Shown here piece by piece: positions 3,247 through 37,370 of a stretch of 64,000 nt of DNA. Origin of the DNA: Tumebacillus sp. BK434 (lineage in GTDB: Bacteria; Bacillota; Bacilli; Tumebacillales; Tumebacillaceae); the NCBI RefSeq assembly GCF_004340785.1, contig NZ_SLXS01000007.1, positions 1-64,000 of the forward strand, given 5' to 3'. Below the pieces are notes generated by a model. It was given only the letters and a program-made list of their open reading frames with translations, did no database searches and was not told the origin of the DNA. Position numbers and translations under genes: made by a program. Each line of letters begins with the position of its first letter. Positions within the stretch are counted from its first letter, which is position 1.

Positions 3247-3258
3247 GAGGGGGATGAG

Positions 3259-3287: not shown

Positions 3288-3329
3288 TTTCTTCCGGAAG
3301 GGAACTATGTTAGTGGTAGAAGTGAGGAG

Positions 3330-3516: not shown

Positions 3517-3525
3517 GGTGGATCG

Positions 3526-3894
3526 ATGACGATCAAACACGTACTTTTAGAATTACTATGCTCCAAAAATTCGAATGAGGATGGTGTGCCCGCATACTGC
3601 AGAAACGGATTTGGTGAGCCGGGTTACCACTGTTTAGAGAACAATTGTAAGCATGTTAGCTTTACTTATGCCCCGCATGAAATTGCATATTCAGCAGAGT
3701 ACGGTGAAGTGCCGGATTCCGATGCTTGGATCGGGTTTGGTGGTGAAATGGTTCCACAAGATATTGGTGATACCAAAATCACAGAGTTTAAAAAATTTGG
3801 GAAGAGGTATGTCGGAAAAAGATTGATGAGGCCTATGATGAATATTTTAGGAGAACAGGTGTCGAGAAATGAGTTTTTAACCTTGAAAGGGTAA
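3526..3894 (+). CDS. hypothetical protein of the accessory island
   Basis: The protein has 122 residues and no family I recognise. It contains YCRNGFGEPGYHC followed by ENNCKHVSF, so four Cys/His pairs could bind a metal, though this is only a pattern. No signal peptide or membrane segment is seen. The ATG has GAGGTGG at 4-5 nt, overlapping the stop of the broken gene upstream, so the two were probably co-transcribed. Codon use is AT-rich compared with the flanks, which suggests transfer. It could be an orphan immunity or accessory protein of the polymorphic-toxin locus, but nothing in the sequence proves that. Confidence 0.5.
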   Translation: MTIKHVLLELLCSKNSNEDGVPAYCRNGFGEPGYHCLENNCKHVSFTYAPHEIAYSAEYGEVPDSDAWIGFGGEMVPQDIGDTKITEFKKFGKRYVGKRLMRPMMNILGEQVSRNEFLTLKG

Positions 3895-3976
3895 TTTGTT
3901 GTGCAGACTCCGAAACCAGCTGGCGAACAATACCAACTTGCATTGGAATATCGATATTGTGAAACATTTGTTTATG

Positions 3977-4038
3977 CAAACAAATCGAGGTATTCGGCAC
4001 TTGATTCCAACTTGGAATGAAGGTCAGGATGTTTTTTC
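3977..4038 (-). pseudogene. fragment of a VOC/glyoxalase-like gene
   Basis: About 60 bases here are close to 12258-12320 inside the intact VOC gene, in the same orientation. Shared blocks include AATCGAGGT, CTTGATTCCA and TGAAGGTCAGGATGTTTTT, with a few substitutions and one missing base. The translated trace AEYLDLF matches AEHLDSF of the intact protein. This is a decayed copy, and it lies on the opposite side of the RHS toxin locus from the intact gene. Confidence 0.65.
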
Positions 4039-4056
4039 AAATAACCAAATATGAGA

Positions 4057-4099
4057 GCACGTGACCTTGTAGGCAAATGCCTACAAGGTCTTTTCGTGC
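4057..4099. terminator. strong hairpin, terminator-like
   Basis: GACCTTGTAGGC, AAAT loop, GCCTACAAGGTC, then TTTT. Outside it GCACG (4057-4061) can pair with CGTGC (4095-4099). The 12-bp stem with a T-run looks like an intrinsic terminator for genes at 3330-3894. Confidence 0.6.
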
Positions 4100-4336
4100 G
4101 CAACAATTTCCCGGCGCTGTGGCGGAATGAATTTGCAACTTTTCCGATGTGCTCCACTTGAATAACAGGAGTTGATGATAGTTTTTTATAGGATTTCCCA
4201 ATGTGTATAAACAATAGCATTATACCAATTTCACCTAATAAACCCATTTTTCACTCATCTGAATTCTTCACAGATTCAGCTATTATGGTAGAGCTATGTT
4301 ACAACTTTGTGAAGACAGCATGAGAGGGGAATGTAA

Positions 4337-7300: not shown

Positions 7301-10300
7301 AAGTTCTATTACACGTATGACAGCGGGAAAAATCAAAAGACGTCCCGTGACCCGTATTACACGAGCCAAGCCAAAGAGCACAATGCGGACGGCAATCCGA
7401 CCAGTGAAACCAACTTCCTCGGCTGGGCGGATAATCTCGTCGACAACAGCAGTTTTGAAAACGCGCCAAACGCTGACGGAACTCCGGCTCATTTCAGCTT
7501 TAACGCAGGGCAGAAAGAGATGTGGTCACATGAGGCGGATGCTTTTGTAGGCAAACAAGCAATCCGTTTGTCTGCAGCGAATAGCAATTCCCTTGGCTAC
7601 ACGGTGCTACAGTCAGATCTTGTAACCGTAAATCCTGCAACGGAATATGTTCTTGCAGGCTATCTGAAGGCAACCCAGCAGTCGGGCACGCAGAACACTG
7701 TACTGTCCGTGATGGTCTACAGCAGCAGCGATGTGTACCTTGGCGAAGTCGGCAAGCTCAGCCTAAACGGATCGTTTGGGTGGCAGCGCTGGAACACGGC
7801 GATTCGGCCAGGCGACTTCCCGGCGAATACGGCAAAAGTGCGCGTGAAGCTGGCCAATGCAAACAGTACGGGTGCAGGCAGTTCTTATTTTGATGCCGTC
7901 CAGTTGCAGCAAAATCCGGTGGACACTGCCTACAACCTGCTCGATAATTCCAGTTTCGAGCGCAAAGCGGCAGGTGTGGAACTCCCGGAATCTTGGGAAC
8001 CAACCGCACTCAGTGGAGACTATAAATGGGTGACTGCCGTACCGGGCGTGGGAACGAATGTATACGCGGGCAGTCGCGCCTTGTCTGTTGCGACCACAAG
8101 TGATACAACAGGTTCGACGGGGTATAACTATGCGCAGATGATCCCGTATGAATCTGACAAGGCGTACAACTTCAGCGCTTTTGCCAAAACCGTGAGCGGC
8201 GCAACCGCAACCCTTAAAATTGCAATGTTTGATGCAAATGGCACCTTGCTGGAAGCTGTCTCGAACAGCCAGTATGGCACGAGTGACTGGAAGCGTTTAG
8301 CGGTAGAGTTGCCGAAAGGGCAGGCAGTAGCGGGTACAGTAACTCTCAAACCGCTGCTTCGAACAGGGACTGCGACAGGAACCGTCTATTTTGACAATGT
8401 GCGCCTGCAGTCAGAAAGCGTGACGACCCGTTATGAATACAAGACGGGCACCGGTTGGATCAGCAAAGCGACCAACGCGAACGGGAACGGCATCACGTAC
8501 GACTATGATGCTTCGGGCAATCCGAAAGTGATCACCAGTCCGAAAGGGTATGTCACGAACCAAAGCTACGATGTTCTGAATCGATTGTCCGAGGTAACGC
8601 TTCCGGGAGGTGCCTTGACTACTCGATACTCCTACGACCGAGACGGACAACTGCTCTCGATCAAAGATCAGGCGGTGTCCGGCGAGAGCAGAGAGACGAA
8701 ATTCAAGTACAACGTACTTGATCAAATCGCTGAAACGATCGATCCGCTTGGGAATTCCATCAAGTACTCCTACACGTCTAATGGGAATTTGAAACAAACG
8801 AATCTGCCTACCGGGCAGACCGTTTCCTATGCGTACGACAAAGCGGACCGCATGACCGATGTTTTGCATAACGGCACAAAGCGTTATCAGTACTCAAACA
8901 TCGATGCGAACGGGAACATCAAAGAGGTCAAAGACCTGGGTCTGGCCTTCTCCTGGTTGGCAAACTATGACGAATTGAACCGCATGACACTCTGGAAAGA
9001 CAACCAGGCACAAGTCTCCTATTCGTATGATCAGGTTGGCAATGTCACGCAAAAAACCTTCACCCCCCTTGGCAGCACCAGCGGGAAGACAGAATGGTTC
9101 TCCTATAATCTGGTCGATCAGCCAATCGCGATGACCGATGCGGATGGCAAAAAGATCCGCTTCCTGTTTAACGAGCACGACCAGCTTTCCACGCTGCAAA
9201 AGGGCAACAACACGATCATGCGCGCGGAGTATGACAATCTGGGGCAAGTTACTGAGTTGCGCAACCAGACGAATTCTGGCGCTTTGTTATCTTCGTTTGC
9301 GTACCAGTATGATGAAGAGAGCAACCTCACCTCGATCCAAGATCAGAGCGGTAAGACGTTGAACTTCGTGTATACGCCGACAGGGGAACTTGAGAAAGAG
9401 GTCAGCTCGACCGGCAATGAAGTGTCCTACACGTACGATGCATTTGGGAACCGGGAACAGCGGGTTCAAAAACTGGCTGACGGTACGGAGACGATCACAA
9501 CGTATCAATATGATCCGACCCACACTCAGTTGGTCAAAGTCAATGATACTGCGTGGTCGTACGATGCAGCCGGCCGTCTCAAGTCGAACGGAAAATTCCT
9601 CTTCGACTGGGATGCAGAAGACCGTCTCACAGCGATTAAACTCGCAGCAGATAACTCGGCTGTAGCCTCGTACGAGTATGACCACTTGGGCCGCCGTGTG
9701 GTGGAACGAATCCGGGAGCATACCACTCAGTTTTTATACAACGGCAACAGCAACCGTGTTGTAGCCGAGTTTTCCGGCGGTGTTCTGCAGAAGTACTACA
9801 CATGGAGTCCTACGGGACAACTGTTGAGCATTACGGACAGCTATGGCGGCGGCGCTACCTACTACACCGTTCATAATCACCGCGGGGATGTCATTAATCT
9901 GACAGATGCGGAAGGCAATATTGCGGCAACGTACGAGTATGATACGTGGGGCGTGCTCCTATCCGAGTCAGGGGCTGCTGCGAAGCTCAATCCGTATTTG
10001 TATGCGGGGTATCGGTATGATCGGGAAACAGGGCTGTATTACCTAAATGCTAGATATTACGATCCAACAGCGGTACGTTTGCTTAGTAAAGATCCTTTGT
10101 CTCAAATGCCAGAGTATGTGTATGTGCACAACAATCCAGTAACCATTGTTGACCCAACCGGGCTTGCAGACCAAGAGCCAGGTCAATACGGTGGGTCAGG
10201 TGGCGGTAACTCGTCTGTTGGTTATGGGCTGGCATATGGGTTGGAAAAAGCATTCGGGTATTTGGGAAATAAAATAAAGCAAGGGGTTACTAAGGCAAAG

Positions 10301-11074
10301 AAGTGGGTGGACGATCTTTTTGAGGGAGTAGGGAAAAAGGGCTGCAATTGCTTTACCGCCGGCACCAAGGTTCTCACTAATGTGGGGGAGAGGCCTATCG
10401 AGGATATTCAAGTAGGTGATCTTGTACTTGCCAAAAACGATGTCTCAGGCGAGATGGCCTTTAAGGAGGTTGAATGGCTATTCAAACGAAATGTTGAAGA
10501 AACATATAATGTTTTTGTGGGTAACGAGGTTCTTACAACAACTGACGAGCATCCATTCTGGATTGTTGGGAAGGGTTGGGTGGAAGCTAAGCACCTTGAA
10601 GTTGGGGATGTACTAACCACATCTAAGGGACTGGAGTTATCCATTAGAAAACTTGTGATTAGAAAAGAACACAAGACCGTGTACAATTTTATGGTGAAGG
10701 ACTTCCATTCGTACTTTGTTTCGAATCTAGGAATATGGACGCATAATAGTTGTAAGTATCAGCCAAGTTCTGTAACTGGGACAGGGGACCACTTAAGACG
10801 ATCATTTGAAATCGAAGGGAACAGTGTCCGAATAAATAGCGGACATGGGTACAATCGAAGTCATAGATCTGGTAGCGTACAGGGAATTGGCACCATGGAT
10901 GAAATTGAAGGAGCTATATTAAGTGATGTAACAACATTGATTACATCAAGGGTAGCATTACCCACGAAAAACACATTACAAAGAACTATATCGGTAAATG
11001 GAAGTAACGTAGGATACGATCTTATGAAAATAAAAGATGGGATAGTTAGTATTTCCACATACTATCCTAAGTGA
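4337..11074 (+). CDS. secreted YD/RHS-repeat polymorphic toxin with Hint domain
   Basis: The protein has 2245 residues. Order: signal peptide (1-33, ending AQA); N-terminal beta-rich part; DNRLRE-type domain (about 285-460); YD/RHS repeats; three jelly-roll carbohydrate-binding-like modules (about 714-875, 1032-1193 and 1201-1358; the second and third begin D-NSSFE) between YD blocks; a long YD array (to about 1870); RHS core (RYYDPTAVRLLSKDP, NNPVTIVDPTGL near 1900-1945); Hint domain (CNCFTAGTKVL at about 2002 to WTHNSC at about 2140); toxin tip of about 105 residues. Both Hint ends (Cys, and His-Asn before Ser) are intact, so self-cleavage and tip release are expected. The tip (HGYNR, then GIVSISTYYPK at the end) has the feel of BECR-fold RNases, but that is inference. 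Start GTG with GAGGGGA. Base composition drops sharply after about 10,030. Confidence 0.9.
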   Translation: MFRKSGFRSAMSILLSAALLLGTLQGTTITAQATEELPKLGKDVSFSEPPTEPVELVEERTENSKSFRNPDGSTTVKVYGQRIHYKDPNTDRWLPIDSNLEVKANGHLRNKANRFSVELKNRANAGFVDFTYEGTGLSFRPLFARAVNAAVEGNELTYENVAPNSDLTYDVTANGLKETIILKDASAPAVYSFEMKSSNLSYQENEDGSVSFFKKGESVPTLNLQTPFMVDANKNISYDVDYQFHTDEGTGTTYLDVVADSAWLQDPERAYPVQIDPTIEAEYNAQVKDTTVESFSPNSACRNENGTCVKFTDWDHTLIGYGVDHGYTRSLYQFQLPKLPNGAVVSNAYFAVQNDTTWVTNETPVVEARRIKQPWVHDTVTWNQANTAGFVDDVNKASYTAKATPGDWWYFDVTKIAKDWYDLKQPNYGMELRYQNESLVLRQLIASYANNGTHYGPALEITYVSDPLGGQSYWTFDGPVNMANRNLYLSGTDISYPGVGVDLNLYRAYNSRSTESGVFGYGWSSPLDVQLQKLDDGSFRLKEADGTIHFFEQNAAKTGYQPLPGLYWTLEKSGTNWLIKTPQKTTYTFVDEWLTEIRDAADNTVTYVRDANKKVSSIKDKKGNAITLTYGTNGKVAAATDPAAKQWSYFYDGSGNLTKVTEPAAAPVGGDFVYRYDSDRRLVASVTPEGKATYYQYADENVITAINPANGMTNSNFEVDSDGDQIPDHLIRSEGQPTGLKDTTAGSPYGQAIKVNVATGSSTPYSVYLSEKISVNPAQPHTLSGYVKATQSSGAHYTILSLLAYNASGTLIGEVEQAARPTVQGTAAWKQIAKTYTSLPAGTAFVSVKMAATNGTGAGTSWFDAIQFEQSSEAGEFVSGAQYTAYAPTKQAASYDGEGKKNLYQYNENMNMEMLQRDPSGMKLTDKYSWSSNERTSHTDPMGRVWTYQYNDQGSLTYSKDPLSHEEWNSYDAAQNLVAHQGPRGSNEKFYYTYDSGKNQKTSRDPYYTSQAKEHNADGNPTSETNFLGWADNLVDNSSFENAPNADGTPAHFSFNAGQKEMWSHEADAFVGKQAIRLSAANSNSLGYTVLQSDLVTVNPATEYVLAGYLKATQQSGTQNTVLSVMVYSSSDVYLGEVGKLSLNGSFGWQRWNTAIRPGDFPANTAKVRVKLANANSTGAGSSYFDAVQLQQNPVDTAYNLLDNSSFERKAAGVELPESWEPTALSGDYKWVTAVPGVGTNVYAGSRALSVATTSDTTGSTGYNYAQMIPYESDKAYNFSAFAKTVSGATATLKIAMFDANGTLLEAVSNSQYGTSDWKRLAVELPKGQAVAGTVTLKPLLRTGTATGTVYFDNVRLQSESVTTRYEYKTGTGWISKATNANGNGITYDYDASGNPKVITSPKGYVTNQSYDVLNRLSEVTLPGGALTTRYSYDRDGQLLSIKDQAVSGESRETKFKYNVLDQIAETIDPLGNSIKYSYTSNGNLKQTNLPTGQTVSYAYDKADRMTDVLHNGTKRYQYSNIDANGNIKEVKDLGLAFSWLANYDELNRMTLWKDNQAQVSYSYDQVGNVTQKTFTPLGSTSGKTEWFSYNLVDQPIAMTDADGKKIRFLFNEHDQLSTLQKGNNTIMRAEYDNLGQVTELRNQTNSGALLSSFAYQYDEESNLTSIQDQSGKTLNFVYTPTGELEKEVSSTGNEVSYTYDAFGNREQRVQKLADGTETITTYQYDPTHTQLVKVNDTAWSYDAAGRLKSNGKFLFDWDAEDRLTAIKLAADNSAVASYEYDHLGRRVVERIREHTTQFLYNGNSNRVVAEFSGGVLQKYYTWSPTGQLLSITDSYGGGATYYTVHNHRGDVINLTDAEGNIAATYEYDTWGVLLSESGAAAKLNPYLYAGYRYDRETGLYYLNARYYDPTAVRLLSKDPLSQMPEYVYVHNNPVTIVDPTGLADQEPGQYGGSGGGNSSVGYGLAYGLEKAFGYLGNKIKQGVTKAKKWVDDLFEGVGKKGCNCFTAGTKVLTNVGERPIEDIQVGDLVLAKNDVSGEMAFKEVEWLFKRNVEETYNVFVGNEVLTTTDEHPFWIVGKGWVEAKHLEVGDVLTTSKGLELSIRKLVIRKEHKTVYNFMVKDFHSYFVSNLGIWTHNSCKYQPSSVTGTGDHLRRSFEIEGNSVRINSGHGYNRSHRSGSVQGIGTMDEIEGAILSDVTTLITSRVALPTKNTLQRTISVNGSNVGYDLMKIKDGIVSISTYYPK

Positions 11075-11084
11075 GGTGATATCT

Positions 11085-11489
11085 TTGTTGTTGAAACACA
11101 TCGACAATTTGCAGTTGTTTCAAAAGATTGACTGGTCTCGTCTTAGTGAAATGGAACTCATGAAGATAGAGGCAGAATTTAACCGAGTTTTAAGTGATAT
11201 TGAGATTGAACTGAATGCGTGTCAGGTACCGTCTATCATTAAAGAAATTATTTCTCGAAATGAAGAACAAGATTTTTTACCGGTTCATTTAGGATTCTTA
11301 GTTTATCAAAGATTGGTACAGCTAGAAGAAAACAAGGTTTTGGCTTTACAGTCATTCTCGGATTACTTACTACTTTATGGTCCAGATTGGCAAGATGAAG
11401 CAGACCAAATGGCTGTAGCACTTAATAACAATGACCTAGAAAGAGCTGTTCATATTGCACTGAAAGTAGATTATGATAAATATCAGTAG
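11085..11489 (+). CDS. probable cognate immunity protein
   Basis: The protein is 134 residues, mostly helical, and not a family I can name. It starts right behind the toxin stop codon: GAGGTGAT, which overlaps the toxin TGA, is the SD and favours a TTG start at 11085 (TTG at 11088 and GTG at 11076 are alternatives; the GTG overlaps the SD). Immediate downstream position, small size, lack of a signal peptide and AT-rich composition are what is expected of the antidote for the RHS toxin tip. Function is therefore inferred from position only. Confidence 0.6.
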   Translation: MLLKHIDNLQLFQKIDWSRLSEMELMKIEAEFNRVLSDIEIELNACQVPSIIKEIISRNEEQDFLPVHLGFLVYQRLVQLEENKVLALQSFSDYLLLYGPDWQDEADQMAVALNNNDLERAVHIALKVDYDKYQ

Positions 11490-11503
11490 TAAATTACTGC
11501 AAG

Positions 11504-11528
11504 CCCGGGTGTATTTCACTCGGGTTTT
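11504..11528 (+). terminator. intrinsic terminator after the toxin-immunity pair
   Basis: CCCGGGTG, TATTT loop, CACTCGGG, then TTTT. One G-T pair. Confidence 0.6.
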
Positions 11529-11572
11529 CTGATGCACTCAGCATATGAGGTGAAATTTTGGGGGATATTTGA

Positions 11573-11695
11573 AGTGGAATTGGCCGAAGTGATGTAATAT
11601 ATGAGGCTATCAAAAATTTTAATAAACATGGTAAGGATGTAGGGGGAGAGGATGTGGCACAAAGAAGTTTTATCAATAATATCGGACATGCATAA
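11573..11695 (+). pseudogene. displaced (orphan) toxin C-terminal fragment
   Basis: One frame stays open from 11573 to a TAA at 11693-11695 and encodes SGIGRSDVIYEAIKNFNKHG plus about 20 more residues ending INNIGHA. It has no start codon or SD, is cut by a TGA just upstream, and its end overlaps the start of the next gene. A start-less coding scrap followed directly by a small gene is the signature of an orphan toxin-tip/immunity cassette left behind when an RHS toxin tip is exchanged. Confidence 0.4.
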
Positions 11696-29263: not shown

Positions 29264-30853
29264 ATGGAGAGCAGAAAAGACAAGCATCAGAAGCCGAAGA
29301 AAAGTGCCAAGTCGACCGATCTTACCAAATCTCCCGCATCTCAGAGCGGTAAGAAGCGATGGTGGAAGACGAAAGGATTCAAGTGGACCGTTGGAGTGAT
29401 CGCCATTCTGATCGTGGCGATCATCGGATTCTACGCCTACTACATCGGCAGCTTTCTTAACGACATCCAGCAAGGTAAAAAAGACCCCAATCAGACTTTG
29501 GTCGAAGTGGAAAAGTGGAGCGGTACCGACCCGGTGAATATCGTGCTGCTCGGGGTGGACAACCGGGACAATGATGAGCATCCGCGCTCCGACAGCATCG
29601 TGGTCGTCTCGATCAACCCGAAGACGAAGAAAGCGAAAGTCATGTCGGTCATGCGCGACCTCTGGTACAAAATCCCGGACGATTACGGGTATGAGAAGAT
29701 CAATGCGGCACATGCGCTGGGCGGTCCGGACCTGACGATCCGGACGCTGAAAGATTTGCTGCAGATCCCGATCCACTATTACGCGAAGACCGACTTCCAA
29801 GGGTTCATCGGGATCGTCGACGCGGTCGGCGGCGTCGAGGTCGATGTCGAGAAGCCGCTGCACTATGCGGATGACGGCGTCTATGACATCAATCTTGAGC
29901 AGGGCCTGCAGATGCTGGACGGCAAAAAAGCGCTGATGTACGTGCGCTTCCGCCATGATGCATTGTCCGACTTCGCCCGCACGGAACGTCAGCGCAAGTT
30001 CATGGTCGCGCTGGCCGACAAGATGGCAACGCCGACGGCGCTGGTCAAACTGCCGAAGATTCTCGATGCGATCAAGCCGTATCTGGAGACGAACATCACC
30101 TCCGGCGACATGCTGAAGCTGGGCAGTCTGGCACTGGAAGTGGACTCCTCGAACATCGAGACGCTGCAGGTGCCGCCGCCCGATACGTTCAAGAGCGGCT
30201 GGGCAGGCGGCGGGCAGTCGGTGCTGCTGCCGAACGTCTATGAAGTGCGCAAGGCGGTGTACGAGTTCCTTGGCCTCGATGTATCGAAGATCGTCGAGGA
30301 CGAGGAAGATCAACCGCAGGAATACTACCAGCCGGACCCGGTGGTGCCGGCCAACCCGAACGTAGATCCGGAGCCGAACCAGCCGGCGGTCGACCCGGAT
30401 GATGTCAACCCGCTGCCAAACGGCGGCACCGCACCGGGCGGTGGGACGACGACGCCGGGTGGAGGCACGACCACGCCGGGCGGCGGAACGACCACACCGG
30501 GCGGAGGCACGACCACACCGGGTGGCGGAACGACGACGCCGGGTGGAGGCACGACCACGCCGGGTGGCGGAACGACCACACCGGGCGGAGGCACGACCAC
30601 ACCGGGCGGAGGCACGACGACACCGGGTGGCGGAACGACCACACCGGGCGGCGGAACGACGACGCCGGGCGGAGGCACAACCACGCCGGGCGGAGGCACG
30701 ACGACACCGGGCGGCGGAACGACGACGCCGGGTGGAGGCACAACCACGCCGGGCGGCGGAACGACAGCGCCGGGCACGGGCACATCGTCCGGCCAGGCGC
30801 TGCCAGGTACGGTGTTGCCGGGCGGTACGGGCGTGACGATCCCCGCTTCGTAA
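29264..30853 (+). CDS. LytR-CpsA-Psr (LCP) family cell-wall glycopolymer ligase
   Basis: The protein has 529 residues: a basic, Lys-rich cytoplasmic head, one membrane segment near 46-65 (WTVGVIAILIVAIIGFYAYY), an LCP domain (NIVLLGVDNRD near 88, RSDSIVVVSINPKTKKAKVM, VMRDLWYKIP, GGVEVDV, RFRHDALSDFARTERQRKF) and a tail made of some 16 repeats of the heptad GGGTTTP. LCP enzymes transfer teichoic-acid-type polymers from lipid carriers onto peptidoglycan. The repeat tail is unusual and probably lies within the cell wall. Confidence 0.9.
   Translation: MESRKDKHQKPKKSAKSTDLTKSPASQSGKKRWWKTKGFKWTVGVIAILIVAIIGFYAYYIGSFLNDIQQGKKDPNQTLVEVEKWSGTDPVNIVLLGVDNRDNDEHPRSDSIVVVSINPKTKKAKVMSVMRDLWYKIPDDYGYEKINAAHALGGPDLTIRTLKDLLQIPIHYYAKTDFQGFIGIVDAVGGVEVDVEKPLHYADDGVYDINLEQGLQMLDGKKALMYVRFRHDALSDFARTERQRKFMVALADKMATPTALVKLPKILDAIKPYLETNITSGDMLKLGSLALEVDSSNIETLQVPPPDTFKSGWAGGGQSVLLPNVYEVRKAVYEFLGLDVSKIVEDEEDQPQEYYQPDPVVPANPNVDPEPNQPAVDPDDVNPLPNGGTAPGGGTTTPGGGTTTPGGGTTTPGGGTTTPGGGTTTPGGGTTTPGGGTTTPGGGTTTPGGGTTTPGGGTTTPGGGTTTPGGGTTTPGGGTTTPGGGTTTPGGGTTTPGGGTTAPGTGTSSGQALPGTVLPGGTGVTIPAS
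30435..30775 (+). repeat. 21-bp tandem repeats in the LCP gene
   Basis: About 16 units of 21 bp encode GGGTTTP. Units differ mostly at silent positions (GGT/GGC/GGA, ACG/ACC/ACA), so the protein repeat is better kept than the DNA. Copy number is likely to vary between strains. Confidence 0.92.
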
Positions 30854-30906: not shown

Positions 30907-30956
30907 CTGTGCGGATTCATACAATTTCGCATCAAACGAACGGGGGAGGAAGGGGA

Positions 30957-31361
30957 ATGGATGACCTGCTACGTTTTCTCGGTGTGATGGCCGCTTTATC
31001 CGCTTCGGCGCAGACGATGACACAACAGTTGCGCAGGCGCTTCAATTGGTTTGAAGCTAAGCCATGCGATCAGGAGCTCGACGGGCAACTGCTTGCCCTC
31101 GCGGAAGGCAAACTGCACGCCAACGTGCATCTGGTCTGCGGCATCAACGGCTTCATCCTCGCTGCGATGGCAAATATTCATCCGCTTTCCTACTTGGGAT
31201 TGACGCCGATCTGGTCGATGAGCGTCTCGCCGTGGATCTCCTACACGATGGACTACATCTGCGCCGGCGTGCTGGTCGCGTACGGCGGGCCATGGTTTCA
31301 TGAAATCCTGGGGATTTTGCGCGAATACAAGTTATCTTTGAAAGGAGGAAAAAACGCTTGA
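30957..31361 (+). CDS. small membrane protein, unknown
   Basis: The protein has 134 residues: a first hydrophobic stretch (FLGVMAALSASAQ), a basic part (LRRRFNWFEAK), a second (LVCGINGFILAAM) and a third (YICAGVLVAYGGPWF). I recognise no family; the layout recalls holin-like or phage-derived proteins, but only loosely. GGAGGAAGGGG precedes the ATG. It is separated by a terminator from the redox-peptide cluster downstream, so it is probably not part of it. Confidence 0.6.
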   Translation: MDDLLRFLGVMAALSASAQTMTQQLRRRFNWFEAKPCDQELDGQLLALAEGKLHANVHLVCGINGFILAAMANIHPLSYLGLTPIWSMSVSPWISYTMDYICAGVLVAYGGPWFHEILGILREYKLSLKGGKNA

Positions 31362-31477
31362 TACTCGAAGCCGATCTCGTCAGGCTTGAGTATGTGTAAC
31401 CTCTCAATCTGCAAGCGGAACACCGACCGTGGATGCTACTCTGTATTCGTCAAAAAGCAACATACCTGAATCCTCCG

Positions 31478-31507
31478 ACCCTATGATTCGAATAGGGTTT
31501 CTTTTTT
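31478..31507 (+). terminator. intrinsic terminator
   Basis: ACCCTAT, GATTCGA, ATAGGGT, then TTCTTTTTT. It insulates the cluster that follows. Confidence 0.8.
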
Positions 31508-31549
31508 GTTCAATATTTTAGAAATATTTTCAAATAAAAGAAGGAAATG

Positions 31550-31578
31550 TTGATTTCGTTTCGAAATATACAAATAAT
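31550..31578 (+). promoter_or_regulatory. probable promoter of the redox/Cys-peptide cluster
   Basis: TTGATT at 31550-31555, a 17-nt spacer and AATAAT at 31573-31578 in an AT-rich stretch. ATTTCG-TTT-CGAAAT (31553-31567) is a perfect inverted repeat over the -35 and spacer, a possible operator. Two AATATTTT copies lie further upstream (31512-31531). Confidence 0.55.
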
Positions 31579-31604
31579 TAATAAATTAAAAGAGGTACTG
31601 TTGA

Positions 31605-32129
31605 GTGGTGAATGCTCTCTTGATCTGGTTATCAGTCTTTGTACCTTCATGTGTTGCAGCTTTGTGGATCGTGTTTCGTTTGTATCGCCAAGCGCGAGCG
31701 GAGATCAATGAATTGCCGCCGGCCGGGCAGTATGGCGGCCCGAAGCATGCGATGCTTGGCGCTTCGCTCAAGTCGGCGATCACTCTGCCTGATTCGGTGC
31801 AGGGAGTAGCGGCGATCGTGCAATTTGCCGCTCCGGGCTGTCCGCTTTGCTCTGAGGAACTGGCGTATTTGGAACGATCCCATCGGAAGCAGCCCTTTCC
31901 GTATGTGTGTTTGTATGAATCGGATCTGGAAGAGCATGCGCAGAAGTTTCTCGCCGATTTTGGACATTTGCACATTCAGCCGATCACTAAGGAGACGATG
32001 CAACTGCTGGGCGTTGTTGCCACACCGCTGGTGGTGATGATCGATGCGGACGGAGTCGTCCGGCAGGTCGAGATCCAAATGGCCAAGATCTTGCCATCGA
32101 TTCAGTCCGCCAAGAGGAGGGCTGGTTGA
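31605..32129 (+). CDS. membrane-anchored thioredoxin-fold protein of the Cys-peptide cluster
   Basis: The protein has 174 residues. One N-terminal membrane segment (ALLIWLSVFVPSCVAALWIV) anchors a periplasm-side thioredoxin-like domain with the redox pair Cys79-Pro-Leu-Cys82 and a Thr140-Pro141 cis-proline site. This is the form of TlpA/MauD-type thiol-disulfide oxidoreductases. The GTG at 31605 has AGAGG at 9-10 nt. Its stop overlaps the start of the MauE-like gene (TGATG), so they are coupled. With two similar proteins it probably oxidises or isomerises the Cys-rich peptide encoded downstream. Confidence 0.82.
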   Translation: MVNALLIWLSVFVPSCVAALWIVFRLYRQARAEINELPPAGQYGGPKHAMLGASLKSAITLPDSVQGVAAIVQFAAPGCPLCSEELAYLERSHRKQPFPYVCLYESDLEEHAQKFLADFGHLHIQPITKETMQLLGVVATPLVVMIDADGVVRQVEIQMAKILPSIQSAKRRAG

Positions 32130-32704
32130 TGGACGATTTGGCGGTGTGGTTTCGCTTCGTGCTCGCGTTTTTATTCCTCTCGACCGCATGGTCGAAGCAC
32201 AAAACGATGGGTGAGCATATCGGTGTTGTCCGCGACTATCAACTCTTGCCCGAGCGGCTGACCGAGCCGTTTGCCAAGGCAGAGACATATGTGGAACTCT
32301 TGCTCGGCTTGTTGCTGCTGCTCGGGCTGTTTCAACCCTATGCAGCCGCAGGGAGTGTGGTGATGCTGCTCATTTATACGGGCGCCATCACGGTCAATCT
32401 TTGGCGCGGCCGCACCGAGATGTCCTGCGGCTGCGGCGGGGTGGCCGGACTGCACCGGATCTCATGGAAGCTGGTGCTGCGCAATCTCTCTCTCGCTTGC
32501 GCCGGAGCCTGGGTTGGCGCTCAGAACATTCCACAGGGGACGATCGATGCGCTTCTTGCAGGTGTAGCCTGGGAAAGTGCGTTTGATCTGCGTTTTGCTG
32601 TCATCTTCGGGTGTTCTGTGCTGACGATGCTGGCATGGACGATCGCAAACGAATTGGGTTCGATTCAGGAAGAGTTCCGAACCTTGCTGGAAGGGAAGTC
32701 GTGA
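32129..32704 (+). CDS. MauE/DoxX-type redox membrane protein
   Basis: The protein has 191 residues with four or more membrane segments. RGRTEMSCGCGG (Cys100, Cys102) is the conserved signature of MauE-like proteins. In methylamine utilisation MauE works with the thioredoxin-like MauD to form the six disulfides of the MauA subunit, probably passing electrons between MauD and the membrane. Here it is flanked by two MauD/TlpA-like genes and followed by a six-Cys peptide, the same logic with another client. AGGAGG lies 8 nt before the ATG. Confidence 0.85.
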   Translation: MDDLAVWFRFVLAFLFLSTAWSKHKTMGEHIGVVRDYQLLPERLTEPFAKAETYVELLLGLLLLLGLFQPYAAAGSVVMLLIYTGAITVNLWRGRTEMSCGCGGVAGLHRISWKLVLRNLSLACAGAWVGAQNIPQGTIDALLAGVAWESAFDLRFAVIFGCSVLTMLAWTIANELGSIQEEFRTLLEGKS

Positions 32705-32705
32705 C

Positions 32706-33311
32706 ATGGATGTGTTGGCACTCGTCTCGAATGTGCTCTTATGGTGCATGTTTCTGATTCAAATGATTTTGTTTTTTGTCGTGACCCGTTCGGTGTCAGA
32801 ATTCATCAAACGATTTAAGATGAACGCCCCGAGCGGCACTGCGAACAGGCCGTCGATCGTGCTGGGCCAAAAAGCGCCGCTGTTCGGCGAACAGGATCAT
32901 CGCGGGGAGATCATCACGTTGAAAAGAGGAGTAGAACATCGCACCTTGCTGCTGTTCACGCTGGATACCTGCGTGGTCTGCCAGAAACTGATCCCGGAGC
33001 TGTCGAGGCTGACGGCCCGCGAGCCGTCACTGCGCGTCGCAGCAGTGGCGCAAGAGGATCTGTCCGCACCGGACAAGCAGGTGCCAGAGGGCGTCGCCCT
33101 GATTCGGAGCAATCTGCTGATCGAGCTGTACGAAGTGAAGCAGGTTCCATATTTTGTGCTGATCAACGGGGAAGGCTTCATCACGGGCATGGGGCTTGCC
33201 TCGACGATCGAACAATTGCTGGAACAGGCCGAATTGAAAGGAGGTGATCGACATGTTGGCGAAAATGATGCAACTGCTGGGCGTTTCGTCGGAGCAAGCG
33301 GTACAGCCTGA
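32706..33311 (+). CDS. MauD-like membrane-anchored thioredoxin-fold protein
   Basis: The protein has 201 residues: N-terminal membrane anchor (LLWCMFLIQMILFFVV), thioredoxin-like domain with Cys89-Val-Val-Cys92 and cis-Pro148 (VKQVPYF). The stretch LIRSNLLIELYEVKQVP is closely matched by FVRSNEIRKEYLITYVP in the protein at 35328-35858, so the two are paralogues. The gene begins one base after the stop of the MauE-like gene. Its last 59 bases overlap, in another frame, the start of the Cys-rich peptide gene. Confidence 0.82.
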   Translation: MDVLALVSNVLLWCMFLIQMILFFVVTRSVSEFIKRFKMNAPSGTANRPSIVLGQKAPLFGEQDHRGEIITLKRGVEHRTLLLFTLDTCVVCQKLIPELSRLTAREPSLRVAAVAQEDLSAPDKQVPEGVALIRSNLLIELYEVKQVPYFVLINGEGFITGMGLASTIEQLLEQAELKGGDRHVGENDATAGRFVGASGTA

Positions 33312-33423
33312 ATCGTACCAATGTTTTGAGGACCATTGCAGTTCCAGGACCCCGTACCGTCAGTTTTCCTGCTCCAGCGGGAATCCCTACTACTGTGACG
33401 TTCCGACTCCGAACTGCTGCTAA
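33253..33423 (+). CDS. six-cysteine small peptide, probable disulfide-rich product of the cluster
   Basis: The peptide has 56 residues. A leader-like first part (MLAKMMQLLGVSSEQAVQPE) is followed by a Cys-rich part with Cys at 24, 29, 40, 48, 55 and 56, ending PTPNCC, with many Ser, Tyr and Pro. The SD AAAGGAGGTGATC is the longest possible match to the 16S 3' end, so very high expression is expected. It overlaps the MauD-like gene and is followed by a terminator, then by an ABC exporter. There is no classical signal peptide, which fits export by the ABC transporter. I infer a secreted disulfide-rich bacteriocin or signal peptide; a metal-binding protein is an alternative. Confidence 0.7.
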   Translation: MLAKMMQLLGVSSEQAVQPESYQCFEDHCSSRTPYRQFSCSSGNPYYCDVPTPNCC

Positions 33424-33459
33424 GGCTTGATACTAATCTTGTTCGAGAAGACGCAACAG

Positions 33460-33498
33460 GCAGACCGCGGGAGCTGATTCCGGCGGTCTGCTTGTTTC
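33460..33498 (+). terminator. terminator between the peptide and exporter genes
   Basis: GCAGACCGC, 14-nt loop, GCGGTCTGC, then TTGTTTCT. Partial termination here would give more peptide than exporter mRNA. Confidence 0.7.
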
Positions 33499-33530
33499 TA
33501 ACTGCAGATCCCGTGGGAGCTGGTAAGTGA

Positions 33531-35315
33531 ATGAAAAACAACGAACTGCTTCAGGCGATTCGATATATTTGGCAAGGCCACCGCACTTGGGTGATCGTAA
33601 CAGCGGTGATCAGCCTCTTGCTTGGGCTGGCTCCGATAGTGAACTTGTGGGTGGCAAAAGAACTGATCAATCAGGTCGCCGATCTATTCAGCGGCGCCCA
33701 CGATGACTATGTGGCAGCGTTTCAATTGTTGCTGCTGCAGTTTCTGGTCTTATTGGCTGCTCCGCTGCTCGGCAAAGGACAGGAACTTTTGGATAAGCAG
33801 ACCGATCTGCGGCTGGATCACGACCTGCAACGCACCATCTTGGAAAAAACGACGAGGGTGCCGCTTGAACTCTATGACCGGCCGGATTTTCAGCATGCGA
33901 TCGAGCGCGTGTACGGCGGTCAGGCGCAGCGGTTTCTCACGCCGATCAAGCAGTCGATGGACATCGCGCGCAACTTGATCACCTTGTTCTCCTTTCTTGT
34001 TTATCTGCTCAGCGTGCATTGGTCGCTCGCTTTGATCAGCGTTGTCGCAGCATTTCCGCTGCTGCTGGTGCTGCGCATCTTTGGGAGCCTGCGTTTTGCG
34101 CTGATGAAGGCGCAGACTCCGCTAGCACGTGAGGCGAATTATTTGAAGCAGTTGATGATGGAGCGTCAGGCGGCCAAGGAAGTCCGGCTGTTTCAATTGC
34201 GCAACTTTCTGCTGGGAGAGTGGTCGGAGCGTTTTCAGCACAATCAGCAGGAGCAGTTGCGGCTATTCAAACGCGAAAAAGGCATGCTGGCGCTGACCGA
34301 TGCACTCACCGCTTTGTTCTATGTTGGTGCTGCAGGCTTGATCATTTGGGTGGCGCGCACCACGATGATCACGATCGGGGATTTTGTCGCGCTGGGGCAG
34401 GCGGTGCAAGGTACGCAGAGCGCGATCAATCAGATCTCCGTGCAGGTGGCCAGACTCTATGAGTCGAGGCTGTATCTGGCCGATTTTTTTAAATTTGCGG
34501 ATGAATCGGTGTTCAGAAATCAACCGGTGCGGGGAACAGCACCGTTTCCTGTTCCCATGCGGCAGGGCGTCTCGATCGAAAATCTCTCCTTCCGCTATCC
34601 GGGAAGCGAACGCAACGCCTTGCGCAATGTCTCTTTGCACATTTCACCAGGGCAGCGCATCGCGATCGTCGGCGAGAACGGATCGGGTAAAACGACGCTT
34701 GTTAAATGCCTGATGGGTCTGTACCCGGTACAGGAAGGATGGATTCGCATTGACGGCGTGCCGATGCAGGAGATTGCCGAAACGGAATGGTTTCACAATC
34801 TCACCGTGATCTTTCAGGATTTCAAACGCTATGATTTCACGGTGCGTCAGAACATCGTCATCGGGCAACTGGCAGCTGCGGCCGATGGCGAGCGGCTGGA
34901 AACGGTGGCGGAGGATACTGGGGTCAAGACGTTTGTCTCCCGCTTTTCAGCAGGCTATGATACGTTTCTCGGGCGCAGCTTTCGGGAGGGAGAGGATCTC
35001 TCCGGCGGACAATGGCAAAAGATCGCATTGGCGCGCGCGCTTTTTTCGGAGGGTCAGCTGCTGATCCTCGATGAGCCGACCGCAGCTCTCGACCCGCAAG
35101 CCGAGCGGGAGGTGTTCGAGCAGTTCGATCACTTGACGCGGGGAAAAACGGCAGTTTTTATCTCGCACCGAATGGCGGCTGCCCGGATGGCAGACCGGAT
35201 CATCGTGATGCGGGACGGAGCGGTCTGCGAGGCGGGCTCGCATGACGAGCTGATCGCTTTGGACGGCGAGTACAAACGCCTCTTCATGATGCAGGCAGAG
35301 TGGTACCACGAGTAA
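33531..35315 (+). CDS. ABC exporter (fused membrane and ATPase domains) of the Cys-peptide cluster
   Basis: The protein has 594 residues: six-helix exporter domain (about 15-320), then an ATPase with Walker A GENGSGKTT near 381, Q-loop FQDF, signature LSGGQWQKIALARA near 490, Walker B LLILDEPTAALD near 511 and H-loop SHR. There is no N-terminal C39 peptidase, so a leader, if removed, is cut by another protease. The form resembles exporters in lanthipeptide and lasso-peptide clusters. It is 107 nt downstream of the peptide gene and 12 nt upstream of a further thioredoxin-like gene. Confidence 0.9.
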   Translation: MKNNELLQAIRYIWQGHRTWVIVTAVISLLLGLAPIVNLWVAKELINQVADLFSGAHDDYVAAFQLLLLQFLVLLAAPLLGKGQELLDKQTDLRLDHDLQRTILEKTTRVPLELYDRPDFQHAIERVYGGQAQRFLTPIKQSMDIARNLITLFSFLVYLLSVHWSLALISVVAAFPLLLVLRIFGSLRFALMKAQTPLAREANYLKQLMMERQAAKEVRLFQLRNFLLGEWSERFQHNQQEQLRLFKREKGMLALTDALTALFYVGAAGLIIWVARTTMITIGDFVALGQAVQGTQSAINQISVQVARLYESRLYLADFFKFADESVFRNQPVRGTAPFPVPMRQGVSIENLSFRYPGSERNALRNVSLHISPGQRIAIVGENGSGKTTLVKCLMGLYPVQEGWIRIDGVPMQEIAETEWFHNLTVIFQDFKRYDFTVRQNIVIGQLAAAADGERLETVAEDTGVKTFVSRFSAGYDTFLGRSFREGEDLSGGQWQKIALARALFSEGQLLILDEPTAALDPQAEREVFEQFDHLTRGKTAVFISHRMAAARMADRIIVMRDGAVCEAGSHDELIALDGEYKRLFMMQAEWYHE

Positions 35316-35327
35316 AAGGAGCCGGTT

Positions 35328-35858
35328 ATGGAACAAACATGGACGCTGTCTCAAGTTGGACTGTGGTGTTTTGCGTTGGTGCAATTCATCCTGTATGGAG
35401 TTTTTCTGCGCATGATCGGTCAATTTTTGAAACGGGTACGCCTGCAGCCCGTCACGGTGCGGCGCGCAGCGCTGGCGCCGGGCGAGACCGCACCGCCGAT
35501 CCGGGCGTCCGATCAACAGGGCCGCAAGGTTGAACTCGCAGCAGGACAGTTGACGCTTTGCCTGTTCGTCTTACATACCTGCGAGATCTGCCACTCGATC
35601 CTGCCACGCCTTTCTGATATCGGAGCGCAGTACCCTGAGATGAAGATCATCGTGATCGCCTCCGAGGACGGAGTGGGCGAAGATGCAGGTCTTCCCGAGC
35701 GTGTGTCGTTCGTGCGCTCGAATGAGATACGCAAGGAGTATTTGATCACCTACGTCCCGGCGATGGTCATGGTGAGCGGAGCCGGGCGCGTGCTGGGGGC
35801 GGCGCGGGTGATGAGCGCAGACGATTTTGAAAAACGGCTGGAACTATACAAAATGTAA
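35328..35858 (+). CDS. MauD-like membrane-anchored thioredoxin-fold protein (second copy)
   Basis: The protein has 176 residues: membrane anchor (VGLWCFALVQFILYGVFL), thioredoxin-like domain with Cys85-Glu-Ile-Cys88 and cis-Pro144 (ITYVPAMV). It is a paralogue of the protein at 32706-33311. Having CPLC, CVVC and CEIC pairs in one cluster suggests separate oxidation and isomerisation steps, or different redox potentials. It is the last gene of the cluster, ended by a terminator. Confidence 0.82.
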   Translation: MEQTWTLSQVGLWCFALVQFILYGVFLRMIGQFLKRVRLQPVTVRRAALAPGETAPPIRASDQQGRKVELAAGQLTLCLFVLHTCEICHSILPRLSDIGAQYPEMKIIVIASEDGVGEDAGLPERVSFVRSNEIRKEYLITYVPAMVMVSGAGRVLGAARVMSADDFEKRLELYKM

Positions 35859-35889
35859 GATCCTTGGATCAAACGGCCAAGAAAAGCTT

Positions 35890-35930
35890 GCGAGGCGCGC
35901 CCTGAGCGGTACCCTCGCTTCTTTTTTTTT
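35890..35930 (+). terminator. terminator of the Cys-peptide cluster
   Basis: GCGAGG pairs with CCTCGC across a 17-nt loop, followed by a run of nine Ts. Confidence 0.72.
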
Positions 35931-35981
35931 CAGGATAACAGGTGTATCATGTAGGGATGAAAGATGATAGGAGGAATCGAT

Positions 35982-37370
35982 TTGTACGGCCTACGGTTCC
36001 AAGCGGCAGTTCTCGCCGCGAAGATGACGAAAAAATTACTTACGCTCACGGGCCGCAAAGGGACGACCCTGCCAGGGCAGATCGCCTTGCGCATCTGTCC
36101 CGATCTGCTCGCCGTCTACGGCAAGCTGCTCGGCCAGCGCACCGTCTTTATCACCGGCACCAACGGCAAGACGACGACGAGCAACCTGCTCGTACACTTC
36201 TTGCGCCAGGACGGTCGGAACGTGATCTCCAATAGCTTAGGCGCCAACCTGATCCAAGGCATCGCCACCACGCTGATCGAAGGCGTCAACTTCGCCCGCC
36301 ATCAGGATCAGGCGGTCGTGCTGGAAGTCGACGAAGCGACGATCGGCAATGTGATCGGCCACCTGCAGCCGAAAGCGGTGGTGGTGACCAACTTCTTCCG
36401 CGACCAGATGGACCGCTACGGCGAGTTGGACACGGTGGTCGACATGGTCGGACGAGCGCTTAAGAAAGCGCCGAACAACACGACGGTGATCCTGAACGCC
36501 GACGATCCGCTGGTGACGTCGATCGCCCCGGAAGGCAAAACGGTGGTCTACTACGGCATCGAGTCCAGCCAGTTTGACTCCGAGTCGCACTCCGAAGTGC
36601 GTGACGGCAAGTTCTGCCGCCAATGCGGGGGCAACTTGCAATACAGTTTGTACCACTACGGACAGCTCGGATTCTATGACTGCCCGGACTGCGACTTCAC
36701 CCGTCCGATCCCATCGGTGGTGGCGGAAGACGTCGCCCTGCACGCGGAAGGCATCCGTTTCCAAGTCGGCTCGGTGACCGGCTTCATCAACTCTCCGGCG
36801 CTCTACAACGTCTACAACGCGCTGGCGGCGATCACCGCCTCCACCGTGTTTGGTGTGCAGGACGAAGTGCTGGTCCGCGAGATGGGCTATATGAAAACGC
36901 AGCTCGGCCGCATGGAGCGACTGACCTCGGCCGGCGGGCGCAACCTGATGCTGACCTTGGTCAAGAACCCGACTGGTTTCAACGAAGTGTTGAAAGTGGT
37001 CGAGCATGAGCAGCGTCCGGTGGAGCTGGTGATCATCCTGAACGACCGCTATGCGGACGGCACCGACGTGTCGTGGATCTGGGACACGAACATCGAGCGC
37101 CTGCACCAGTTCGCCGACCTGCGCCGCATCTACTGCGCCGGGACGCGGGCGGAAGACTTTGCGATCCGCCTGCGCTATGCGGACCTCGGCAGCATCACCG
37201 AGATCGTCGAGCCTGACATCGCTTGTGTCGAACAAGCTCTGCGCGACCTGCCGGACGGGCACATGCTGTACATTCTGTCCACCTATACCTCGCTCTACAA
37301 CATTCGCGACCATCTGCTGAACCAAGGAGGGAAGGAACTTGCACCTGAAAATCGCGCATCTGTATCCTGA
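35982..37370 (+). CDS. murT: lipid II isoglutaminyl synthase, Mur ligase subunit
   Basis: The protein has 462 residues. Together with GatD it amidates the alpha-carboxyl of D-Glu in lipid II at the membrane. It has the ATP loop TGTNGKTTTSNLL near 60, NFFRDQMDRYGEL, a Cys4 zinc ribbon (CRQCGG and CPDC) inside the central domain as in all MurT proteins, and the C-terminal domain with DVSWIWD. AGGAGG at 7 nt selects the TTG at 35982. An ATG 18 nt upstream contains that SD and is rejected. It overlaps gatD by 32 bases. Confidence 0.93.
   Translation: MYGLRFQAAVLAAKMTKKLLTLTGRKGTTLPGQIALRICPDLLAVYGKLLGQRTVFITGTNGKTTTSNLLVHFLRQDGRNVISNSLGANLIQGIATTLIEGVNFARHQDQAVVLEVDEATIGNVIGHLQPKAVVVTNFFRDQMDRYGELDTVVDMVGRALKKAPNNTTVILNADDPLVTSIAPEGKTVVYYGIESSQFDSESHSEVRDGKFCRQCGGNLQYSLYHYGQLGFYDCPDCDFTRPIPSVVAEDVALHAEGIRFQVGSVTGFINSPALYNVYNALAAITASTVFGVQDEVLVREMGYMKTQLGRMERLTSAGGRNLMLTLVKNPTGFNEVLKVVEHEQRPVELVIILNDRYADGTDVSWIWDTNIERLHQFADLRRIYCAGTRAEDFAIRLRYADLGSITEIVEPDIACVEQALRDLPDGHMLYILSTYTSLYNIRDHLLNQGGKELAPENRASVS

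What the first reader, a model, noticed from the sequence alone, without database searches (positions are those of the whole stretch)
31605..35858. MauE/MauD-type redox cluster around a six-cysteine peptide and an ABC exporter: a candidate new disulfide-peptide pathway
Six genes in one direction: thioredoxin-fold (CPLC), MauE-like (SCGCGG), MauD-like (CVVC), a 56-residue peptide with six Cys, an ABC exporter without peptidase domain, and a second MauD-like protein (CEIC). In methylamine utilisation MauD and MauE are known to help form the disulfides of MauA. Here no methylamine dehydrogenase gene exists; the only Cys-rich client is the small peptide. The setting recalls sublancin-type clusters (peptide, exporter, thiol oxidoreductases) but without a glycosyltransferase. 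I infer export and oxidative folding of a disulfide-rich bacteriocin or signal.
Basis: partly seen in the sequence, partly recalled or inferred. Interest (0 to 1): 0.92.

Follow-up and report, generated by a model that had tools for sequence, protein, structure and literature searches.

The report
Cysteine-rich peptide export and oxidation cluster
This gene cluster of a Tumebacillus-like bacterium looks like a dedicated assembly line that ties a small six-cysteine peptide together with sulfur bridges and exports it; relatives occur in at least ten related genera, with a hint that the bridges may be made on the unexpected, inner side of the membrane.

Summary
In detail: six co-oriented genes (31605-35858) encode a TlpA-like protein (CPLC), MauE, MauD-like (CVVC), a 56-aa six-Cys peptide, an ABC exporter without peptidase domain and a second MauD-like protein (CEIC). 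The peptide looks real: a profile built without this genome finds it (E 1.1e-7), and 33 of 37 examined MauE loci of the class Bacilli hold a Cys-rich short ORF (21 backed by profiles, 12 by looser rules; 6 Cys in 18, 4 in 10, 7-8 in 5). The cluster is an island: in six of six family relatives its flanking genes stand 70-103 bp apart. The genome gives no hit to MADH light chain, DsbB or VKOR. Most likely it makes an exported, disulfide-stabilised bacteriocin- or signal-like peptide with its own thiol-oxidation system. MauE/MauD beside Cys-rich RiPP candidates is precedented in Streptomyces (decRiPPter), DoxX/thioredoxin in lasso clusters, so I file it as a new variant. Surprise: flanking charges put the MauD/TlpA thioredoxin domains and the MauE CGC loop on the cytoplasmic side, suggesting oxidation before export; controls are three for, one against. 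No product, disulfide or activity has been shown.

The parts
31362..35900 (.). Island: stretch absent between the flanking orf (30909-31361) and murT (35964-37370) in relatives
   Evidence: In 6 of 6 other genomes of the family the homologue of orf 30909-31361 ends 70-103 bp before murT, measured between alignment ends; right border only approximate
31605..32129 (+). TlpA/redoxin-like membrane-anchored thioredoxin-fold protein, CPLC
   Evidence: PF08534 E 9.9e-7; N-terminal hydrophobic segment
32129..32704 (+). MauE/DoxX-family membrane protein with SCGCGG
   Evidence: PF07291 E 5e-26; model mean pLDDT 89.5
32706..33311 (+). MauD-like membrane-anchored thioredoxin-fold protein, CVVC
   Evidence: TIGR02661 E 2.9e-16, below its cut-off; profile of its homologues matches ResA, best E 2.3e-9
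33253..33423 (+). 56-aa peptide, Cys at 24, 29, 40, 48, 55, 56; the proposed client and product
   Evidence: Profile without this genome E 1.1e-7; related peptides in sister clusters
33455..33496 (+). Strong hairpin between peptide gene and exporter gene, possible attenuator
   Evidence: Folding z -2.85; hairpins between a peptide gene and the next gene also in L037, L038, L039, L047 and after the last peptide of L046; none in L048 or between the first two peptides of L046 (8 stretches folded). Not reported by the terminator scan; no clear T-run in the window
33531..35315 (+). ABC exporter (membrane domain plus ATPase) without C39 peptidase domain
   Evidence: PF00005 E 4e-32, no peptidase family listed; nearest solved chains are ABCB-type exporters
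35328..35858 (+). Second MauD-like protein, CEIC
   Evidence: TIGR02661 E 1.8e-6, below cut-off
35904..35920 (+). Terminator-like site at the end of the operon
   Evidence: Consensus scan only; 7 sites found in the region against 5.2 expected

Best explanation
The cluster makes and exports a small disulfide-rich peptide. The 56-aa peptide is translated (supported by homology only), and its six cysteines are joined into disulfides by the neighbouring thiol-redox proteins: MauE acts as the membrane oxidase that passes electrons onward, probably to quinone, and the TlpA-like and two MauD-like thioredoxin proteins shuttle disulfides to the peptide (inferred). The ABC exporter then moves the peptide out (inferred); as it has no leader peptidase and some relatives have almost no leader, the N-terminal stretch is either kept or cut by a host protease. 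A hairpin after the peptide gene would keep peptide levels above exporter levels (inferred). The product most likely acts on other bacteria or as a signal; which one is not known. Sub-claim, held less firmly: the redox domains face the cytoplasm, so that oxidation comes before export.
For: 33 of 37 MauE loci of Bacilli carry at least one Cys-rich short ORF in or beside the cluster: 21 by profile at E<=0.01 (15 of these loci gave seeds; L039, L111, L113, L115, L118, L120 did not), 11 by the leader-and-Cys rule, L117 by Cys count and position. In the whole 64 kb window the only profile hit at E<=0.01 is the peptide. Leave-one-genus-out profiles recover Brevibacillus (E 3.7e-8 to 9.7e-5, 3 of 3 seeded), the unnamed genus g19 (7e-7, 9e-7) and Exiguobacterium (2e-6 to 0.009); the window peptide E 1.1e-7. 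Codon changes favour synonymous ones in L114/L115 (6 to 1) and in 11 of 15 pairs of Brevibacillus 4-Cys ORFs. Exporter gene near in 34 of 37 loci. The genome (97.85% complete) has no hit to DsbB (control: 7 of 14 genomes, B. subtilis among them) or VKOR (control: 4 of 14), so MauE is the only candidate membrane oxidase of the families sought. Hairpin after the peptide. Several diverged peptides per locus: T. lacus three plus a 5-Cys ORF, L111 three, L113 three. Island placement and plasmid copies in Priestia and Exiguobacterium fit an accessory function. MauE and a thioredoxin gene also sit in a 4-Cys lasso cluster (L062).
Against: No expression, mass or activity data. 4 of 37 loci show no peptide that I accept: L053 and L107, and L110 and L112, which are cut by a contig end (L112 and L107 do have Cys-rich ORFs that I judged chance or overlap). 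Leaving out Tumebacillus, profile B recovers only L039 (E 0.0035); Fictibacillus 0.21, the Paenibacillaceae MAG 0.89, Priestia not at all; the B. formosus-type 4-Cys peptides are not found by profile. The rule behind the other 12 loci also fires by chance (18 of 42 hits), and many Brevibacillus loci are near copies of each other. Codon test against: 4 of 5 pairs with L100, and L096/L099 (1 to 2). Three of 37 loci lack the exporter nearby, L037 of this genome among them. This genome has another MauE-MauD locus (L041, tatC) without such a peptide. In sviceucin and MS-271 the DoxX/thioredoxin genes are dispensable for disulfides; the sviF mutant lost the peptide from the medium (review PMC9266682). 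No immunity or regulator gene among the six; neighbours were not annotated systematically. Structural matches of MauE to VKOR are weak (Z 4.9-5.6); best is NACHO (Z 11.4, rmsd 2.6, 116 aligned), under the caution level for helical bundles.
Confidence: 0.7

Rival explanations
1. The redox proteins do not make the disulfides; they help the exporter handle an already self-oxidised peptide (chaperone or transport aid).
For: Lasso precedent: a sviF mutant still made disulfide-bonded sviceucin but it stayed with the mycelia; MS-271 was made without mslE or mslF, with lower yield (PMC9266682, passages).
Against: Three CxxC proteins plus a CGC membrane protein is a heavy outfit for a transport aid; CGC is invariant in 14 of 14 aligned MauE proteins.
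Confidence: 0.15
2. The peptide binds metal (copper or zinc) through its cysteines and the cluster is a metal-buffer or metallophore system, as in bufferins with their DoxX-like HvfX.
For: MauE weakly matches the HvfX family model (19.4 bits, cut-off 80); the peptide is Cys-rich.
Against: No MNIO enzyme among the six genes, Cys number varies, and the HvfX match is far under its cut-off.
Confidence: 0.1
3. The peptide is a signal or developmental factor (for example in sporulation) rather than a toxin; the pathway itself is as in the best explanation.
For: Spore-forming genera (recalled); no immunity gene among the six; N-terminal segment better kept than the core within Tumebacillus, by eye.
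Against: Island placement, plasmid copies and several diverged peptides per locus are more usual for accessory weapons.
Confidence: 0.25

Closest known systems
decRiPPter candidate families with MauE (one also MauD) in Streptomyces (PMC7794033; section 7 read, both parts)
   Same: MauE, with MauD in one, beside a predicted precursor rich in Cys; authors suggest precursor modification
   Different: Those precursors have at least 8 Cys, are from Streptomyces, came through a filter that asked for peptidase and regulator genes; no comparison with these peptides was made here. Here three CxxC proteins and a peptidase-less ABC exporter, in Bacilli
Class I lasso clusters (svi, msl, abo) with DoxX protein and thioredoxin-type protein (PMC9266682, PMC6409603; passages read)
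   Same: DoxX-family protein plus CXXC protein, ABC transporters, disulfide peptide
   Different: No lasso cyclase or B proteins among the six window genes; peptide is not a lasso precursor
Sublancin and other glycocins (recalled, and as mentioned in PMC9266682)
   Same: Cys-rich peptide, exporter and thiol oxidoreductases in one operon
   Different: No glycosyltransferase among the six genes, no C39 peptidase domain, no DsbB-type homologue in the genome
MauE/MauD of methylamine utilisation (locus L123)
   Same: MauE with CGC, MauD adjacent downstream, Cys-rich client gene next
   Different: MauD-like proteins match TIGR02661 far under cut-off; no MauA found in the genome; no other mau gene among the six
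TMcin cluster of staphylococci (PMC13252029; abstract and passages read)
   Same: Disulfide needed for activity, thiol oxidase and ABC transporter in the cluster
   Different: DsbA-like TmcD, transmembrane precursor; the term Mau does not occur in its main text

Membership tests
Pfam MauE (PF07291) | Profile match over gathering score | tested here: met
   91.9 bits against 27
Methylamine dehydrogenase maturation MauD (TIGR02661) | Profile match over curated cut-off | tested here: not met
   59.5 and 27.5 bits against 188.6
Methylamine dehydrogenase system | MADH light chain MauA in the genome | tested here: not met
   PF02975: no match at E<=0.1 in G000; control rang in 2 of 14 genomes, none over cut-off; genome 97.85% complete
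Glycocin (sublancin type) | Glycosyltransferase in the cluster | tested here: not met
   None among the six genes
C39-peptidase bacteriocin exporter (PCAT) | N-terminal C39 domain and double-Gly leader | tested here: not met
   No peptidase family listed for the exporter; peptide has no GG site
Lasso peptide cluster | Asn-synthase-like cyclase and B proteins | tested here: not met
   Absent among the six genes; present in L062
RiPP in the wide sense | Ribosomal peptide with enzymatic post-translational modification | not testable with these tools
   Needs mass spectrometry of the product
decRiPPter MauE-type candidate RiPPs | MauE plus Cys-rich predicted precursor plus transporter | tested here: met
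   Gene set in the window
decRiPPter MauE-type candidate RiPPs | Sequence relation of the precursors | not tested
   Streptomyces precursor sequences were not fetched
DsbB/BdbC or VKOR oxidase | Profile match of some protein in the genome | tested here: not met
   PF02600 and PF07884: no match at E<=0.1 in G000; controls rang in 7 and 4 of 14 genomes
VKOR/DsbB-like fold for MauE | Structural match | tested here: inconclusive
   VKOR rows Z 4.9-5.6, many unrelated bundles alike
Bufferin/HvfA-HvfX | HvfX model over cut-off | tested here: not met
   19.4 bits against 80

The most novel reading that the evidence does not exclude
MauE, MauD and the TlpA-like protein form a disulfide-making machine that faces the cytoplasm: it oxidises the peptide at the inner side of the membrane before the ABC exporter takes it out. 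The same arrangement would explain true MauE/MauD, whose client MauA carries a twin-arginine-type signal and is thus likely exported folded. This would break the rule that bacteria keep dedicated disulfide formation to the outside of the membrane. (Odds lowered from 0.4 to 0.35 on checking: one of four control proteins and one choice of start codon go against it.)
Probability: 0.35. Interest if true: 0.88.

Novelty: new variant of a known kind. Interest (0 to 1): 0.66.

Why it matters
It points to a family of genetically encoded 4- to 8-Cys peptides with their own oxidation and export genes in at least ten genera of Bacilli (ten numbered genera whose loci carry a peptide), a tractable source of disulfide-rich peptides with natural client-enzyme pairs. 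It also offers a simple way to test what MauE and MauD do, which a 2020 paper still calls speculative or unclear (PMC7794033). If the topology reading is right, it would be a dedicated cytoplasm-facing disulfide system, useful for making disulfide proteins inside bacteria.

Tried and rejected
Peptide fold: the AlphaFold model of the window peptide has mean pLDDT 48.1, no use. MauE profile against PDB sequences: one chance hit, E 0.62; Foldseek of the MauE model: nothing at E<=0.001. Phages (tblastn) and viral contigs: no MauE relative, so no sign of a phage-borne copy as for sublancin. The window peptide itself finds nothing in plasmids (tblastn E<=1), though plasmid clusters carry related peptides. 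Rfam (gathering scores) and tRNA: nothing in the window.

Considered and dropped: that loci such as L051/L101, L052/L097, L096 and L099 lack a peptide. My first scans looked at the MauE strand only; on the other strand each has a Cys-rich ORF, and L113, L116 and L118 were added later. A guess that the 12-14-Cys protein beside another MauE/MauD pair (L138, L140) is MauA-like: BLASTP gives no match. A guess that laterosporulin clusters are relatives: the one paper opened for this gave nothing on it (PMC9867215, passages).

Rows left out of the count of 37: duplicates L048 (=L102), L051 (=L101), L052 (=L097), L122 (=L116); proteobacterial L055-L061 and L063 (MauE-MauD found, no exporter); lasso locus L062; the weak MauE hits of G000 on C3 and C11. 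One search gave 32 matches in 25 of 398 genomes (a sample of the class; at most 8 candidates per genome were scored, so possibly a lower bound), and all 32 were examined. L053 and L054 come and L119-L121, of whose 10 hits five were opened (H1, H2, H6, H7, and H4 as methylamine reference).
Full report
Observation. Family models support MauE firmly, the TlpA-like protein and the exporter clearly, and the two MauD-like proteins only as distant relatives of MauD, far under its cut-off. The profile of MauD1 homologues matches the ResA/TlpA thioredoxin group among solved structures (best E 2.3e-9). The exporter has no listed peptidase domain and its nearest solved relatives are ABCB-type exporters such as Ste6, P-glycoprotein and MsbA.

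Is the peptide real? Alone, a Cys-rich ORF is weak evidence: a loose rule finds two more elsewhere in the window, and 18 of its 42 hits over 474 kb look unrelated by eye. The comparison carries the case. The genome (G000, 4.65 Mb; same genus as Tumebacillus avium, which I identify with G001 by matching coordinates) has three other MauE loci with strong scores (E<=6e-34), and each holds a Cys-rich peptide in the cluster: L037 (6 Cys), L038 (6), L039 (8). A fourth, more distant MauE-MauD locus (L041) has none that I accept. T. avium has three such loci (L050 with two 4-Cys peptides) and T. lacus one, with three 6-Cys peptides and a 5-Cys ORF without leader. A profile from the T. avium and T. lacus peptides alone finds the window ORF at E 1.1e-7 and L037 at 1.2e-7 among 5295 short ORFs of all loci.

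Spread. A search of 398 genomes of the class with the MauE alignment gave 32 matches in 25 genomes, 11 of 145 genera. I looked at all 32 and at five more loci (L053, L054 from named genomes; L119, L120, L121 from Priestia and Exiguobacterium plasmids): 37 in all. A Cys-rich short ORF lies in or beside the cluster, within about 3.7 kb of mauE, in 33 of 37: 6 Cys in 18 loci, 4 in 10, 7 or 8 in 5. Twenty-one loci are backed by profile A or B at E<=0.01; 15 of these gave seeds to the profiles, six (L039, L111, L113, L115, L118, L120) did not. Eleven rest on the leader-and-Cys rule and L117 on Cys count and position; nine of these twelve are Brevibacillus loci with near-identical peptides (three divergent, six downstream), so they are not independent. 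Four have none that I accept: L053 and L107, and L110 and L112, which are cut by a contig end; in L107 and L112 there are Cys-rich ORFs that I judged overlap or chance. The exporter gene is near in 34 of 37, not in L037, L101 and the truncated L110. Orders vary: TlpA-MauE-MauD-peptide-ABC-MauD2 in the window and T. avium L047; TlpA-peptide-ABC-MauE-MauD in L038, L039, L054; peptide first, or divergent, in Brevibacillus, Exiguobacterium and others.

Peptide family. Profile B peptides often share a core ending like Y-D-T-R-D-G-x-x-C-x(5-7)-C-x-C, seen by eye in the alignment. With one genus left out, profile B still finds that genus for Brevibacillus (3 of 3 seeded peptides, E 3.7e-8 to 9.7e-5; the B. 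formosus-type peptides not), the unnamed genus g19 (2 of 2) and Exiguobacterium (nine ORFs in four loci, one locus a duplicate, E 2e-6 to 0.009), but only L039 of Tumebacillus (E 0.0035), weakly Fictibacillus (0.21) and the MAG (0.89), and not Priestia. So sequence homology is shown for part of the set; for the rest the claim rests on leader, Cys and position. The window peptide belongs to the shorter A group (Tumebacillus) with a leader like M-L-x-x-L-x-K-M-L-G and a C-terminal CC. In A3 (13 peptides) three Cys columns are invariant. Codon changes: L114/L115 six synonymous to one non-synonymous; among 15 pairs of six Brevibacillus 4-Cys ORFs, 11 have more synonymous changes, 4 (all with L100) do not; L096/L099 has one to two. 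No close orthologue of the window peptide exists for such a test.

Genomic setting. In all six other genomes of the family the homologue of the gene before the cluster (30909-31361) stands 70-103 bp before murT, measured between alignment ends; here 4.6 kb with the whole cluster lies between them. The cluster is thus an accessory island. A strong hairpin follows the peptide gene in the window (z -2.85); hairpins also lie between peptide and next gene in L037, L038, L047 (z -3.2 to -5.5; in L037 about 100 nt after the peptide), more weakly in L039 and L046, and not in L048 or between the first two peptides of L046. The consensus terminator scan did not list the window one.

Redox partners. The genome (97.85% complete, 32 contigs) has no match to DsbB or VKOR at E<=0.1, while the same searches rang in 7 and 4 of 14 control genomes, and none to the MADH light chain (control 2 of 14, none over cut-off). 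MauE is therefore the only candidate membrane oxidase among the families I sought. CGC is invariant in 14 of 14 aligned MauE proteins. The MauE model is confident (pLDDT 89.5); its best structural match is NACHO (Z 11.4, rmsd 2.6, 116 aligned), with GGCX (Z up to 6.2) and VKOR (Z up to 5.6) lower; for a helical bundle this is suggestive at most.

Topology, the unexpected point. By the positive-inside rule (established knowledge) the basic flank of a membrane segment stays inside. In 33 of 33 MauD-type N-termini the flank after the segment is more positive than the one before (mean +2.8 against -0.3); for TlpA-type 22 of 30, against 3 the other way and 5 ties. These sequences are related, and N-termini were cut near the start of the profile match, so the result depends on the start chosen: with its longest start the MauD of L039 gives +4/+4. 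Controls from the same genome: three ordinary anchored thioredoxin proteins show the reverse (+3/0, +2/-1, +2/+1), as expected for domains outside, but a fourth anchored protein (L133, SCO-like by eye) gives 0/+2 with its longest start, against the control. In MauE the two loops on the CGC side carry more Lys/Arg than the two opposite loops in 13 of 14 proteins, one tie; the CGC-side stretches counted are longer, and the N-terminus, which should lie opposite, has 3-5 Lys/Arg in 5 of 14, which counts against or reflects wrong starts. Still, both protein types point to the same, cytoplasmic side. The bias is small for true MauD (0/+1) and the MauD of the tatC locus (-1/0). Two side facts fit: true MauA has a twin-arginine-type signal (TSRRGFIG; motif recalled), and another MauE-MauD pair is followed in two loci (L138, L140) by a 12-14-Cys protein with no signal-like hydrophobic stretch. 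A membrane-coupled thiol system facing the reducing cytoplasm would make most sense as an oxidase.

Prior work. decRiPPter listed three Streptomyces candidate families with MauE, one also with MauD, each with a precursor of at least 8 Cys, and proposed precursor modification (PMC7794033, section 7 read). Class I lasso clusters carry a DoxX protein and a CXXC protein; a sviF mutant still made the disulfide peptide but it stayed with the cells (PMC9266682, passages; PMC6409603, passages). TMcin uses a DsbA-like protein and an ABC transporter (PMC13252029, outline, abstract and passages). My searches of the open-licence PMC library (listings only apart from the papers named) showed no paper on this peptide family; most subscription papers were not searchable.

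Verdict. Real, conserved in part by sequence and widely by arrangement, and accessory; most likely a disulfide-peptide export pathway. The idea of MauE with Cys-rich precursors exists; the family in Bacilli, its peptides and the topology hint are what is new here.

Noticed in passing
L062 (Bacillus sp. NTK074B), 5974-11590: MauE and a thioredoxin-fold gene sit in a lasso-peptide cluster (PqqD-like, transglutaminase-like, Asn-synthase-like, ABC) with a 4-Cys precursor.
   Followed up: partly
L041 (G000:C11:60000-69500), 1633-5737: A further MauE-MauD pair lies between two tatC genes, which may tie MauE/MauD to export of folded proteins.
   Followed up: partly
L138 (also L145) and L140 (also L147): MauE-MauD followed by a 12-14-Cys protein of 148-159 aa (the two are 39% identical) without a Pfam match or meaningful NCBIfam match and without an export signal, then a membrane protein.
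   Followed up: partly
window 29264-30853: LytR-like protein (by eye) with a long tail of repeated TTPGGG units.
   Followed up: no
L046 7519-7614 (T. lacus): 31-aa 5-Cys ORF resembling a peptide core without leader, perhaps a decayed copy.
   Followed up: no
L119 10200-13366 (Priestia megaterium plasmid): Three genes annotated as TIR-domain proteins lie downstream of the peptide cluster.
   Followed up: no
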